Below, piece by piece: positions 17,750 through 33,702 of a stretch of 64,000 nt of DNA. Origin of the DNA: Chloroflexota bacterium (GTDB lineage: Bacteria > Chloroflexota > Anaerolineae > J036 > Brachytrichaceae); contig JANXLU010000012.1 of NCBI GenBank assembly GCA_025354985.1, positions 62,001 to 126,000 of the forward strand. Direction: 5' to 3'. Position numbers and translations under genes: made by a program. The notes under the pieces were generated by a model. That model searched no databases. It had not been told where the DNA came from and saw only the letters and a program-made list of their open reading frames with translations. Numbering within the stretch: position 1 is the stretch's first letter; the number at the start of each line of letters is the position of its first letter.

Positions 17750-18385
17750 ATGGCGAACGACCGTTTGAATATCAACCTTGACGTGAAGGCCAACGACGTG
17801 GGCAGCAAGCGCGTAAATGTGCGCAGCAGCCTGCAGGTGGCCACGCTTATCGGAACGATCAAGGACAAATTCAACCTTGACGGGAATTATGAAATGCGCG
17901 CAGCGGGAGGATATGTCAGCCTGCCAACGGATCGACCACTCAACCAAGCCGGTATTTCGGACGGTGCGACACTGGTCGTTACGCGAATCGTTGAAGCCAC
18001 CGGCACACTGGAAGCGATTCGACGTGGTGAACGCAAACCGTTTAGCAAGCGATTCAAACGAGCCTATTTGCAGGAGGAGCGCACACTCACCGAGTTTGAC
18101 CTACTGTGGCAACCGGCGGTCTTGGGCAGACGGGACCATCGCAACCCCAGCAACAATCGATTGCTGGCGGTGGATCTTGAGGGGATTGAACCCCTGCCAA
18201 CTGTGTCACGCGCCCATGCCTGCATCACCGAGGCGAACGGTTCGTTTTATATCGAAGATATACAGGGACGCAACCCGGTCTACGTCAATGGCAAAAAACT
18301 GCCGGCCAGCGCAACCCAGCAGTTGCCGGCAGGGGCGGTCATCCGGGTCGGTCGACTCAACCTGACGTTTAACCTGATCAGCTAG
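17750..18385 (+). CDS. Ubiquitin-like (YukD/EsaB-type) plus FHA domain protein
   Basis: This 211-residue cytosolic protein has two domains. Residues 1-75 form a beta-grasp, ubiquitin-like fold in the style of YukD/EsaB (LNINLDVKANDVGS... ending ISDGATLVVTRIVEA). Residues ~115-210 are an FHA domain (VLGRRD, TVSRAHACI, YVNGKKL, IRVGRLNLTF), which binds phosphothreonine peptides. I chose ATG 17750 because the domain starts there; an upstream in-frame start at 17666 would add 28 unrelated residues. YukD-like domains are associated with type VII secretion, but no EssC-type ATPase or WXG100 protein is nearby. Two other FHA proteins lie within 16 kb. The function is unknown. Confidence 0.75.
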   Translation: MANDRLNINLDVKANDVGSKRVNVRSSLQVATLIGTIKDKFNLDGNYEMRAAGGYVSLPTDRPLNQAGISDGATLVVTRIVEATGTLEAIRRGERKPFSKRFKRAYLQEERTLTEFDLLWQPAVLGRRDHRNPSNNRLLAVDLEGIEPLPTVSRAHACITEANGSFYIEDIQGRNPVYVNGKKLPASATQQLPAGAVIRVGRLNLTFNLIS

Positions 18386-20242: not shown

Positions 20243-22144
20243 TTAGTCTCGGTTCACATAGCGGGTACTATCGGATCCGCTCAATAGATCACTGCTTGCC
20301 GTACTAAATCTAAGCTTTACACCCTTGCGGGTCAGGTCGCCCAGAATTAACTCATCACCTTCGTGCAAGTCAATCTGCTGGCCTTGAGGAATACGACGAC
20401 CGTTCAAAAATGTGCCCGAGCTGCTGGAATCCGTGATGAAGCTCCGGCCGTCAATCGCTTCAATGGTGCAGTGCGCACGGCTGATGGAGCTCTCCTGATT
20501 TGCAAAGAATTGGAGATCAGTACCTTGCGGACTACGGCCGATCACCGTCTTCGCCAGGGTGAGTTTGAGCGGATAGTTGATCAGCTCGCGGGGCCCGGCA
20601 AGTACAGTTAGGGATCCATAGGTCACGGCTTTGCCCGGCGCGTAGATCATGGTTTTGGGTGCGTCCTGTCGTTGCCCACGCCGCCGCATGATGATGACCG
20701 CCGCGCCTGCAAGCAGGCCCAATACAAGCACCGCTCCCCCTACCCCGGCGGCGGCACCCGTGGTCAGCGTAACACCCTGTGGCGTCGGAGACGGCGCGAC
20801 CGTGGGCACGGGTGTGGGCGGCGCAATGACGGTGACGAACAAATCCGAGCGACCAACATTCTCCACGCCCAGCGAGTCTTTTATACGCACTTCAAGCCTG
20901 AGCGGTTTTTTGTTCACCGCCGTGGTCGCCGCGTCACTTAGGTCACCAACAAATTCCACCCTGCCCGGGGTTATTTTTGGCACAGCCGAGGTGACCCGAC
21001 CGTCCACCAAGAGCTGAGCCGTTTCCACGGTACGCGTAAATCCATCCGCAAACTTATAGGAAGCCACGACCTGTGGTCGCAAAGGCGGATACGTCGACTC
21101 GCCATTGGCATTGGTGGTGGGCTCGCGTCGGAGCTCATTGCCTGTGGCGGGTGTGTCAATGGTCACGCTTGCGGGCAGAGGCGACACGGCATAAGTGGCG
21201 GTTCCCTGCACTGGCTGGTCGGCGGCGTTAACCGTGATTCGGCGGTTACCCGGTGTGCCGACTGCGCTGGTGTACGTGACTTGATAGTAAGTTCGCTGCG
21301 CAGAGACCGCACGATAGGCATTTTCGGCATCGGTTCCAATATTTGGCCCAAGCTGAATGTAGGCGCCGTTGCTGACGCCGGCAAGCGTTTGCAGTGGCTC
21401 TTTCGGTGTAAAGCCATCGGTCTGAATGGCAATAATGGTCATCCCCTTCGCGCGCGCGTCACCAGCATAGTTTCGGGCCGCGGCCGCCGCCACTTGAGGC
21501 GCCGGGTCCTCCACGCCACGTGACACAAAAACGATGGCAACTGGCTGGCTGCCGGGGACGGGCACGAAACCAGCTGCGGAACGTATGGCATCCTGAACCG
21601 CCTCAAGACCCTTTGTGGGCGCACGGCTGCGGGTTGCAAACGTCTCACGACCCACCCACTGGCCGTAGTCATCACGACGCGTGGTTGGGTTCACCACCAC
21701 CTCGGTGCGATCACCACTGACATTTTCGCGCGACAACACCTGTACACGATCCCGACCGTCAACAAATATGTTCCGTTCAGTCAGTGTGCCCAGCGCAGTA
21801 CGCAGCGGATTGGCAACCGCGAGATAGTTGTTGTTAACGCCATAATCGATCACGAAGATAAACGTCATTGGACCGTCATCTTTTGGTGTGATCTGCACAT
21901 TTTGGGCCGGAACCAACTGACCATTTTCAAAGATGGGCAGGTTGCCGGGATTGAGCCCGGTTATCACCTTGTTGCTCGCGTCCAAGGCGCGCAATTTGAA
22001 ACCAACCTGGGGGAAAGCACTCGCAACCACATCGGTGATGACATAAGCGCCGGCCGCTTGTGCTCGCGCAGGCAGCGTCACCTGGCACAGACCGACCATA
22101 GTCAAACCCAGCGCCAGTGATAGTCGAAGCAGGATACGTGACAT
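20243..22144 (-). CDS. Secreted VWA-like domain, membrane anchor, cytosolic FHA domain
   Basis: This 633-residue protein has a signal peptide at residues 1-30 (cut after PARAQA). An extracellular von Willebrand A-like region follows (TFIFVIDYGVNNNY in the MIDAS position; IVFVSRGVEDPAP), then Ig-like beta domains. One membrane span near residues 460-485 (GAVLVLGLLAGAAVIIM) is followed by basic residues, and a C-terminal FHA domain at ~520-615 (KTVIGRSPQG, SISRAHCTI, GTFLNGRRIPQG) should be cytosolic. It could link an external ligand to phosphothreonine signalling inside. The MIDAS is not canonical DxSxS, so metal binding is uncertain. A similar protein occurs at 58.3-60.4 kb. Confidence 0.85.
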   Translation of the reverse strand: MSRILLRLSLALGLTMVGLCQVTLPARAQAAGAYVITDVVASAFPQVGFKLRALDASNKVITGLNPGNLPIFENGQLVPAQNVQITPKDDGPMTFIFVIDYGVNNNYLAVANPLRTALGTLTERNIFVDGRDRVQVLSRENVSGDRTEVVVNPTTRRDDYGQWVGRETFATRSRAPTKGLEAVQDAIRSAAGFVPVPGSQPVAIVFVSRGVEDPAPQVAAAAARNYAGDARAKGMTIIAIQTDGFTPKEPLQTLAGVSNGAYIQLGPNIGTDAENAYRAVSAQRTYYQVTYTSAVGTPGNRRITVNAADQPVQGTATYAVSPLPASVTIDTPATGNELRREPTTNANGESTYPPLRPQVVASYKFADGFTRTVETAQLLVDGRVTSAVPKITPGRVEFVGDLSDAATTAVNKKPLRLEVRIKDSLGVENVGRSDLFVTVIAPPTPVPTVAPSPTPQGVTLTTGAAAGVGGAVLVLGLLAGAAVIIMRRRGQRQDAPKTMIYAPGKAVTYGSLTVLAGPRELINYPLKLTLAKTVIGRSPQGTDLQFFANQESSISRAHCTIEAIDGRSFITDSSSSGTFLNGRRIPQGQQIDLHEGDELILGDLTRKGVKLRFSTASSDLLSGSDSTRYVNRD

Positions 22145-23561: not shown

Positions 23562-23650
23562 GCCGAAGTGTTCGGGGGGATGATAGCGCACGTTGGTCTG
23601 TTTATACTTTTGTCATTTTGACGTAACAGTTGGCTGGCACTGTTGCGGGC

Positions 23651-24346
23651 ATGGAGAAACTATTTAGGTCCCAATTTATTGTTGCCGCTGCGGCAGTGCT
23701 GCTTACCGCCGGGTGCGGGCAAGCACCAGTTCCCGTGCCTATTAGCAATGTGGCTGCCACCGCAGCACCACTTTTGAGCGCGACCGCCGATTCGAAGCTG
23801 GCCGAAAGCAATGCCATGGAAGCCAAAGCCACCGACACGGCCATGAAGGCTACCGAAGCCAAGTCAACCGAGACCGCGAAGATGGCAGCGGAAGCCAAAT
23901 CGACCGCGACCGCAATGAAAGCCGTCGAGGCAAAATCAACCGAAACTGCGATGATGGCGATGGAAGCCAAATCGACCGAAACCGCTATGAAAGCCATGGA
24001 AGCCAAGGCCATGGCCCCCCGAACCGGACAGTTCTACAACTTGGACGAAAAGGGCGCGGGAACGGCAGTGCTTGCAAAGACGGAGTCAGGCGATTTCAGT
24101 CTTTTATTCAAAGGCTTCAAGGTGAACAACGGACCCGACTTGTATGTGTATCTGGTGGTAGATGACCCGGTCGCAAAGGACGGGCCAGGCGTGATCAAGG
24201 GCGCGCTTAACCTTGGCAAATTAAAGGCAAACTCTGGCGATCAGACGTATTCCATCCCAACCGGCATGGATATTTCCAAGTACAAGAGCGCGATCGTGTG
24301 GTGCCAAACTTACAGCGTGACATTCATCGCCGCACCGCTAAAGTAA
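23651..24346 (+). CDS. DM13-domain lipoprotein with tandem 12-residue repeats
   Basis: This 231-residue protein has a lipobox LLTAGC (Cys22). Residues ~57-121 are helix-forming repeats of EAKSTETAMKAx, which should make a rigid stalk. Residues ~125-231 form a DM13 domain (TGQFYNLDEKGAGTAVL, NNGPDLYVYLVVDDP, IVWCQTYSVTFIAAPL), including the conserved cysteine near residue 221. DM13 domains have been proposed to take part in extracytoplasmic redox reactions. It probably stands off the outer membrane surface. The ATG at 23651 starts the signal peptide; a start 21 bp upstream would add residues that do not fit one. Confidence 0.88.
   Translation: MEKLFRSQFIVAAAAVLLTAGCGQAPVPVPISNVAATAAPLLSATADSKLAESNAMEAKATDTAMKATEAKSTETAKMAAEAKSTATAMKAVEAKSTETAMMAMEAKSTETAMKAMEAKAMAPRTGQFYNLDEKGAGTAVLAKTESGDFSLLFKGFKVNNGPDLYVYLVVDDPVAKDGPGVIKGALNLGKLKANSGDQTYSIPTGMDISKYKSAIVWCQTYSVTFIAAPLK
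23816..24013 (+). repeat. 36-bp tandem repeat inside the DM13 gene
   Basis: About five and a half in-frame copies of a 36-bp unit encode EAKSTETAMKAx with substitutions (K/T/A variants at positions 4-12). The copies differ at many bases, so the array is not recent. It encodes the spacer between lipid anchor and DM13 domain. Confidence 0.85.
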
Positions 24347-33306: not shown

Positions 33307-33702
33307 TTAAGCGTCCTGATCGGCGCTACCCGTTGTTCCGTCAAGAACCTCGGGTGGCTGGCTAAATGCCACTTCCTCGCCGTATATTACATCCACGCCG
33401 CCAAGGGAAATAATATCGCCGGCCTCAAGCGGGCATTGCGCAATTGGATAGCCGTTCAGCCTGGTTCCACCGGTGCTATTCAGATCCACACACAAAAACC
33501 TCATTGACTGAGTTTGCCAGCGCAATTCCACGTGCATACGACTGACGCGCCGATCATCAATTACGACATCACCTTCGCGGCTGCGTCCAATGCGAACGGT
33601 ATTTTGATTCAGAATAATTTGGCGATTGCCATCCACAATGAGAAATGGGCGCCGGGGCAATTGCAGCCGGGTTATGGTTTGATCGCTGTGCACAGGTTGC
33701 AT
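33307..33702 (-). CDS. Stand-alone FHA domain protein
   Basis: This 131-residue protein is almost only an FHA domain: TVRIGRSREGDVVIDDRRVSR is close to consensus, followed by RMHVEL, a DLNSTGGTRLNG loop and a terminal GDIISLGG strand. It should bind a phosphothreonine peptide in the cytosol. No kinase is encoded in the window. A short acidic C-terminal tail follows. It is the first gene of the minus-strand set with amylase, DapA-family lyase and racemase-family enzyme; what links it to them is unclear. Confidence 0.85.
   Translation of the reverse strand: MQPVHSDQTITRLQLPRRPFLIVDGNRQIILNQNTVRIGRSREGDVVIDDRRVSRMHVELRWQTQSMRFLCVDLNSTGGTRLNGYPIAQCPLEAGDIISLGGVDVIYGEEVAFSQPPEVLDGTTGSADQDA

What the first reader, a model, noticed from the sequence alone, without database searches (positions are those of the whole stretch)
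17750..18385. Ubiquitin-like domain fused to an FHA domain
A YukD/EsaB-like beta-grasp domain precedes a phosphothreonine-binding FHA domain. YukD-like proteins belong to type VII secretion, where FHA domains occur in EssC; a direct fusion without secretion ATPase nearby is unusual and could be an adaptor in Ser/Thr kinase signalling.
Basis: partly seen in the sequence, partly recalled or inferred. Interest (0 to 1): 0.5.

Follow-up and report, generated by a model that had tools for sequence, protein, structure and literature searches.

The report
Ubiquitin-like/FHA part of type VII secretion
The gene encodes a real two-part protein, a ubiquitin-like domain joined to a phosphothreonine-reading domain, and it looks like a stray part of a little-described protein-export machine of Chloroflexota bacteria, one that often uses an unusually large motor.

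Summary
In detail: window 17750-18385 (+) encodes 211 aa, a ubiquitin-fold domain (residues 4-84, Z 12.0 to ubiquitin) followed by an FHA domain (Pfam 43.9 bits). "No secretion ATPase nearby" is true only of this window. In 28 of 30 genomes inspected the gene lies within 162 bp of an EccC-type type VII secretion (T7SS) ATPase gene, same strand; the exceptions are this genome and G280. This genome has the other parts elsewhere: a 2962-aa EccC with seven P-loops, a membrane pseudokinase and WXG100 proteins. The FHA gene at 20243-22144 belongs to relatives' T7SS clusters. So this is a T7SS part separated from its operon. In an EccC tree, all 32 testable rows of a 34-row branch come from loci or genomes with the fusion; two more distant fusions pass Pfam's cut-offs for YukD and FHA. 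FHA pocket residues are invariant in 19 of 19 sequences. Most likely mechanism (inferred): the ubiquitin-like half docks on EccC, the FHA half on a phosphorylated or kinase-like partner, gating secretion. Ten searches of open papers listed no description of it. New variant of a known kind.

The parts
17750..18385 (+). Ubl-FHA gene, 211 aa; T7SS accessory component
17759..17995 (+). ubiquitin-like (YukD/EsaB-type) domain, about residues 4-82
   Evidence: (sub-threshold Pfam)
18059..18382 (+). FHA domain, about residues 104-211; GR 126-127, SRxH 153-156 and N175 invariant in 19 of 19 aligned sequences
20243..22144 (-). FHA protein (633 aa, C-terminal FHA; no Pfam VWA match; signal-like start and a hydrophobic stretch by eye); its family (37-39% identity) lies in the T7SS clusters of relatives and is also convergent to Ubl-FHA in L046 and L067
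58265..60463 (-). 732-aa protein with C-terminal FHA; best matches are VWA-FHA genes of relatives' T7SS clusters (30-33% identity)

Best explanation
Window 17750-18385 encodes the Ubl-FHA subunit of a Chloroflexota type VII secretion system. In most relatives it is encoded beside the EccC motor, usually directly downstream; here it has been separated from EccC by rearrangement but kept intact. Shown: two-domain fold, constant linkage to EccC in relatives, presence of the other T7SS parts in this genome. Inferred: the Ubl half binds an ATPase domain of EccC, as the EccD ubiquitin-like domain does in ESX-5. The FHA half takes the place of the FHA domains that EssC carries in Bacillota and binds either a threonine-phosphorylated partner or the membrane-anchored zinc-ribbon pseudokinase encoded beside EccC. 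It would thereby couple Ser/Thr kinase and PP2C signalling to assembly or activity of the motor. The confidence below is for 'T7SS component'; the phospho-dependent step alone I put at about 0.5.
For: Fold. Linkage: in 28 loci the gene is adjacent to EccC on the same strand, gap -17 to 162 bp, 26 downstream and 2 upstream. That is 28 of 30 genomes inspected; the protein is full-length in 29, and in G164 the match covers residues 42-210. Co-occurrence in 396 class genomes: 14 of 17 Ubl-FHA genomes have EccC at E<=1e-85 against 43 of 379 others, p 1.8e-10; the other three (G003, G018, G164) have EccC or a piece of it at the locus. EccC tree of 69 rows: all 23 labelled rows fall in one branch of 34, SH-aLRT 100; of the 11 others, 9 could be tested and all 9 have a Ubl-FHA gene after EccC. 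Own genome: EccC at C91; pseudokinase at C53, 342 bits, next best 88; 6 WXG100 matches over cut-off; no other YukD match at E<=1. FHA pocket residues G126, R127, S153, R154, H156, N175 invariant in 19 of 19. The EccC frame gives no FHA hit at E<=0.01. Passages read: EccD Ubl contacts EccC's first nucleotide-binding domain (PMC11217815); EssC FHA binds the EssB pseudokinase and lacks phosphate-binding residues (PMC10765036).
Against: No experiment exists; both binding steps rest on analogy. The window gene is not near EccC, so a new role after separation cannot be excluded. G002 of the same genus has EccC fragments but no Ubl-FHA match: loss or an assembly gap. The window protein's Pfam YukD score is below cut-off. 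The EccC bit scores of 1046 (EccCa) and 1508 (EssC) are sums over repeated modules; the best single place scores 364 bits, under the EccCa cut-off of 509, and no genome (0 of 396) reaches it. One search also missed the whole EccC of G164 that one search shows, so its counts are low. Genomes are related, so counts are not independent. The FHA's phosphopeptide and partner are unknown.
Confidence: 0.88

Rival explanations
1. Variant of the mechanism: a phospho-independent structural bridge. The FHA half constitutively binds the membrane pseudokinase, as EssC FHA binds EssB, and serves assembly rather than signalling.
For: A zinc-ribbon-like, kinase-like protein lies upstream of EccC or of the Ubl-FHA/EccC pair in 19 of the 25 T7SS neighbourhoods with wide context, divergently in 15 and on the same strand in 4. 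It has one C-terminal membrane helix and no HRD aspartate in the 8 of 8 sequences aligned. EssC FHA lacks phosphate-binding residues yet binds EssB (PMC10765036 passages).
Against: The pocket residues lost in EssC FHA are invariant here in 19 of 19; kinase and PP2C genes are also in several clusters.
Confidence: 0.35
2. T7SS-independent adaptor: after leaving the EccC neighbourhood the protein serves general Ser/Thr kinase signalling in this genome, perhaps with the neighbouring FHA gene.
For: Not linked to EccC in G000; 13 FHA hits and several kinase-like hits in the genome.
Against: It is the only YukD-type match in the genome while EccC, pseudokinase and WXG100 proteins persist; it keeps 48-61% identity to the ten closest T7SS-linked homologues aligned.
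Confidence: 0.08
3. The N-terminal part is not a YukD relative but another beta-grasp family (for example TGS or MoaD-like).
For: Pfam YukD below cut-off; the fold lists show ubiquitin-type proteins generally.
Against: hhalign to a T7SS YukD; distant fusions beside EccC pass Pfam's YukD cut-off; constant linkage to EccC.
Confidence: 0.04

Closest known systems
EsaB/YukD (TsxB) of T7SSb and of the newer Bacillota subtypes
   Same: small ubiquitin-like component next to the EccC/EssC ATPase
   Different: a discrete small protein there (PMC11217815 passages); here fused to an FHA domain
EccD of T7SSa (ESX)
   Same: ubiquitin-like domain used as part of the motor complex
   Different: EccD's partner is a multi-pass membrane domain; no EccD match over cut-off in 17 of 17 Ubl-FHA genomes
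EssC N-terminal FHA domains (T7SSb)
   Same: FHA domain as part of the T7SS core
   Different: there fused to the ATPase and without phosphate-binding residues (PMC10765036 passages); here on the Ubl protein with the pocket residues kept
TseJ/TsfJ (DUF6382-FHA) of T7SSe/f
   Same: separate FHA protein encoded in the T7SS cluster
   Different: N-terminal DUF6382 instead of Ubl (PMC11217815 passages)
TshM of T7SSh and EssB of T7SSb (for the neighbouring pseudokinase)
   Same: kinase-like part plus one membrane helix (passages)
   Different: the Chloroflexota protein starts with a CxxC...C zinc-ribbon-like stretch in 7 of 8 aligned sequences; Pfam gives kinase families only, apart from one chance-level hit

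Membership tests
Type VII secretion system (general) | EccC/EssC FtsK-type ATPase encoded with, or in the genome of, the component | tested here: met
   single-place EccCa score 364 bits is below NCBIfam's cut-off of 509, the whole repeated protein scores 1046; closest solved chains are 4nh0 (E 1e-87), YukB and EccC5
Type VII secretion system (general) | WXG100 proteins present | tested here: met
   own genome: 6 of 7 matches over Pfam cut-off (below cut-off the model rings in 13 of 14 control genomes, so only those over it count); WXG100-type genes by BLAST in 18 of 25 neighbourhoods with wide context (three of these proteins confirmed by Pfam)
Type VII secretion system (general) | demonstrated secretion of a WXG100 substrate | not testable with these tools
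YukD/EsaB family | ubiquitin fold | tested here: met
YukD/EsaB family | Pfam YukD score over curated cut-off | tested here: inconclusive
   window protein 19.2 against 27 bits; distant fused homologues 38.7 and 33.8; hhalign to a YukD 92.8%
FHA domain | Pfam FHA over curated cut-off with GR, SRxH and N motif residues | tested here: met
T7SSa (ESX) | EccD membrane protein | tested here: not met
   no match over cut-off in 17 of 17 genomes; two weak hits (G357, G387) to the Ubl part only. None of the 14 control genomes rang, so the search had no positive control
T7SSb | FHA domains at the N-terminus of the ATPase | tested here: not met
   no FHA hit in the 2963-aa frame at E<=0.01; in the window genome and several relatives the EccC frame starts within a few residues of a PPRIQPxxP-type stretch
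T7SSb | EssB/YukC | tested here: inconclusive
   the neighbouring pseudokinase matches kinase families in Pfam and no EssB family; similar layout only

The most novel reading that the evidence does not exclude
Chloroflexota carry their own phosphorylation-gated type VII secretion subtype. Its Ubl and FHA modules are fused into one soluble gate protein instead of being fused to EccD or EssC. Its EccC motor has grown, perhaps independently in at least three lineages, to (D1-D2)x3-D3 with up to seven P-loops in one chain of about 2,900 aa.
Probability: 0.5. Interest if true: 0.75.

Novelty: new variant of a known kind. Interest (0 to 1): 0.6.

Why it matters
T7SS subtypes a to j have been defined in Actinomycetota and Bacillota (PMC11217815: abstract and passages seen; 'chloroflex' occurs 0 times in its main text). 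A Chloroflexota subtype with a Ubl-FHA fusion suggests that the ubiquitin-like and FHA modules are interchangeable pieces of one regulatory layer around EccC, and gives a soluble 211-aa protein on which phospho-control of a T7SS can be tested directly. The seven-P-loop motor raises the question of how many active ATPase sites a T7SS needs.

Tried and rejected
Considered and rejected: assembly artefact for the giant EccC (seen in separate genomes, including contigs of 2.1 Mb, G280, and 6.3 Mb, G493); a plasmid-borne origin (tblastn of the window protein against 72,556 plasmid records: no match). A single ancestral triplication of EccC modules is not favoured, where D1 modules group mostly by lineage, but gene conversion could do the same; not decided. 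In that tree my pattern missed three D1 modules (two of G642, one of G708), so 33 of 36 were used and the G708 module labelled 'second' is really the third. A claim that the fusion is exclusive to the 34-row EccC branch was dropped. The PDB fold lists did not show YukD itself; this is not evidence against it. In the phylum survey (39 of 400 with a match) 28 genomes match with the FHA half only and were not counted; G000 and 10 others are full-length.

Rows dropped: one of 8 pattern matches for P-loops in the giant EccC (residue 1174) was left out because it lies outside the FtsK modules; Pfam independently gives seven stretches. The pattern finds 5 to 7 P-loops in the giants of other genomes (one further chance match was counted in some rows). 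The EccC tree used all 60 places plus 9 I chose; left out were 4 of the 10 phylum genomes (G465, G493, G426, G486) and the fragments of G002, G003, G018 and UBA6663. The row of G279 was labelled on the assumption that its EccC pieces on two contigs are one gene.

Led nowhere: NCBIfam gave only sub-threshold hits for the window protein. None of the ten paper searches listed a description of this system; subscription papers and preprints are not held, so an earlier description may exist.

Full report
The gene. Window 17750-18385 (+) is an intact 211-codon reading frame starting at ATG. Pfam finds an FHA domain (43.9 bits, cut-off 20.7) and a sub-threshold YukD match (19.2 bits, cut-off 27). With ten natural sequences AlphaFold2 models residues 5-80 as the beta-grasp order strand, strand, helix, strand, short helix, strand, ten-residue blocks at pLDDT 75-91; mean pLDDT is 69.5 and the FHA part between 121 and 153 is poorly modelled. 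VIA-align fits residues 4-84 to ubiquitin with Z 12.0, rmsd 1.9 over 77 residues. A profile of 19 homologues aligns over residues 3-81 with a YukD protein from another EccC locus, probability 92.8.

Relatives and context. Among 60 genomes (own plus 59 relatives), 7 others have the full-length protein. That the window is from Chloroflexota, class Anaerolineae, is inferred from these. In 396 genomes of the class, 17 have the protein. In 400 genomes of the phylum there are 10 full-length matches outside the class. Reading the neighbourhoods, the gene lies next to an EccC gene in 28 loci, always on the same strand, with gaps from -17 to 162 bases; 26 are downstream and 2, in the window's own genus, upstream. 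Thirty genomes were inspected (8 of the family, 9 others of the class, 3 further named contigs, 10 others of the phylum); in G164 only residues 42-210 were matched. The two without linkage are the window genome and G280, which both have EccC elsewhere.

What the partner is. In the window genome EccC is at contig C91:118833-127721, 2962 aa. Over the whole protein it scores 1508 bits on the EssC model (cut-off 778) and 1046 on EccCa (cut-off 509), but these are sums over repeated modules: the best single place scores 364 bits on EccCa, E 1.0e-108, under the cut-off. The nearest solved chains are 4nh0 (E 1e-87; that it is an EccC is recalled), YukB and EccC5. Pfam finds seven FtsK/SpoIIIE stretches. 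The seven modules with P-loops are of three kinds: 1, 3 and 5 are 67-68% identical with a Walker B ending in DE, 2, 4 and 6 are 45-50% identical, and module 7 ends the chain. I read this as (D1-D2) three times plus D3; the four ordinary EccC chains read in the family have three P-loops and open frames of 1,365-1,419 aa. Membrane helices were not detected at my simple threshold; the N-terminal match to the EccCa profile suggests them.

Completeness of the system in this genome. Six WXG100 matches pass Pfam's cut-off, three of them (with a fourth, weaker one) in one cluster on C66. A zinc-ribbon-like, kinase-like protein with one C-terminal membrane helix, encoded upstream of EccC in 19 of 25 wide neighbourhoods, is at C53 with 342 bits, next best 88. 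Its catalytic-loop aspartate is replaced in the 8 sequences aligned, so it is probably a pseudokinase, though Pfam's kinase model is matched over cut-off. A kinase with FHA domains, a VWA-FHA protein and a PP2C phosphatase lie together on C20, followed by a gene 47% identical to a Pfam PP2C protein. The FHA protein at window 20243-22144 has its best matches inside the T7SS clusters of relatives, and in L046 and L067 its relative is also convergent to Ubl-FHA. So the window seems to keep one half of the ancestral cluster, with an S41 peptidase gene between.

Co-occurrence and tree. In the 396 class genomes, 14 of 17 Ubl-FHA genomes and 43 of 379 others have EccC at E<=1e-85, Fisher p 1.8e-10; the three remaining Ubl-FHA genomes have an EccC or a piece of one at the locus. 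The test ignores kinship, and one search missed the EccC of G164. In a tree of 69 EccC N-terminal regions all 23 rows labelled with Ubl-FHA fall in one branch of 34 rows, SH-aLRT 100, quick method, midpoint root. Of the 11 unlabelled rows in that branch, 9 could be tested by fetching the DNA beyond EccC, and all 9 have a Ubl-FHA gene there; one of them (G380, second locus) matches weakly (E 2e-08). The other two (G216, G298) are cut by contig ends. Outside the branch I looked at 10 of 35 rows. Three have no match (G016, G205, G301); G251 and G025 have a stand-alone YukD; G045 has FHA repeats only; G026 has a protein with weak beta-propeller hits next to EccC; G005 has an FHA protein with a DNA-binding domain; G200 and G362 have YukD-FHA fusions that pass both Pfam cut-offs. 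So the fusion is typical of the branch but not exclusive to it. G002, same genus as the window, has EccC fragments and no Ubl-FHA match.

Mechanism. Shown: fold, linkage, co-occurrence, and an invariant FHA pocket signature (G126, R127, S153, R154, H156, N175) in 19 of 19 aligned sequences that share only 12 invariant columns in all. That such residues contact phosphothreonine in other FHA domains is recalled. [quoted passage not shown] Inferred: the FHA takes the place of the EssC FHA domains, which bind the EssB pseudokinase but have lost phosphate-binding residues (PMC10765036, passages). Since here the pocket is kept and kinase or PP2C genes are in several clusters, phospho-dependent gating is somewhat more likely than a constitutive bridge.

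Membership and novelty. It is encoded as a T7SS component and most likely works as one. It is not T7SSa (no EccD over cut-off in 17 of 17, a search without a positive control) and not T7SSb (no FHA on the ATPase). The 2024 survey of T7SS subtypes covers Actinomycetota and Bacillota (abstract and passages); a 2006 survey lists YukD for low-GC Gram-positives and Actinobacteria (passages). WXG100 or ESX components in Chloroflexi have been noted in print (PMC4010439, PMC10765036 and a table of PMC3482391, passages), so the presence of T7SS-type genes in the phylum is known. The Ubl-FHA fusion and the seven-P-loop EccC were not described in the listings and passages I saw from ten searches.

Noticed in passing
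L061:2833-11721 (own genome C91); also L040, L045, L067, L068, L086, L092, L167-L176: Giant EccC of about 2,900 aa with (D1-D2)x3-D3; the D1 modules group mostly by lineage, which fits several independent triplications to the same size or gene conversion.
   Followed up: partly
L073:3986-5164 and L074:9915-11060: At two ordinary EccC loci (G016, G026) the gene next to EccC is 380-390 aa; L074's has weak beta-propeller hits after an N-terminal stretch that looks Ubl-like by eye: perhaps another fusion partner of the Ubl.
   Followed up: no
window 33307-33702 (-): A further small FHA protein (131 aa from ATG; FHA hit), near an MscL-like gene by eye; relation to T7SS not tested.
   Followed up: no
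window 23630-24346 (+): Lipoprotein-like gene (by eye) with a repetitive EAKSTETAM region; the opposite strand is open over the same repeats.
   Followed up: no
window 1-64000: No tRNA or tmRNA gene found in 64 kb.
   Followed up: no
L071: Contig titled Thermoflexus hugenholtzii JAD2 isolate LE-05nov19-69 matches by length (4502) the contig of genome G003, placed in the window's genus; the title may be a loose label.
   Followed up: no
L168:12409-13206, L067:12695-13567: Conserved 265-290 aa protein beside the WXG100 genes in several clusters, no Pfam match of note; possibly a chaperone.
   Followed up: partly
G357:C23:39958-40176, G387:C517:6336-6554: Two Ubl-FHA genomes carry a further small open frame (89-99 aa) resembling the EccD ubiquitin-like part, maybe a second, stand-alone Ubl.
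   Followed up: no
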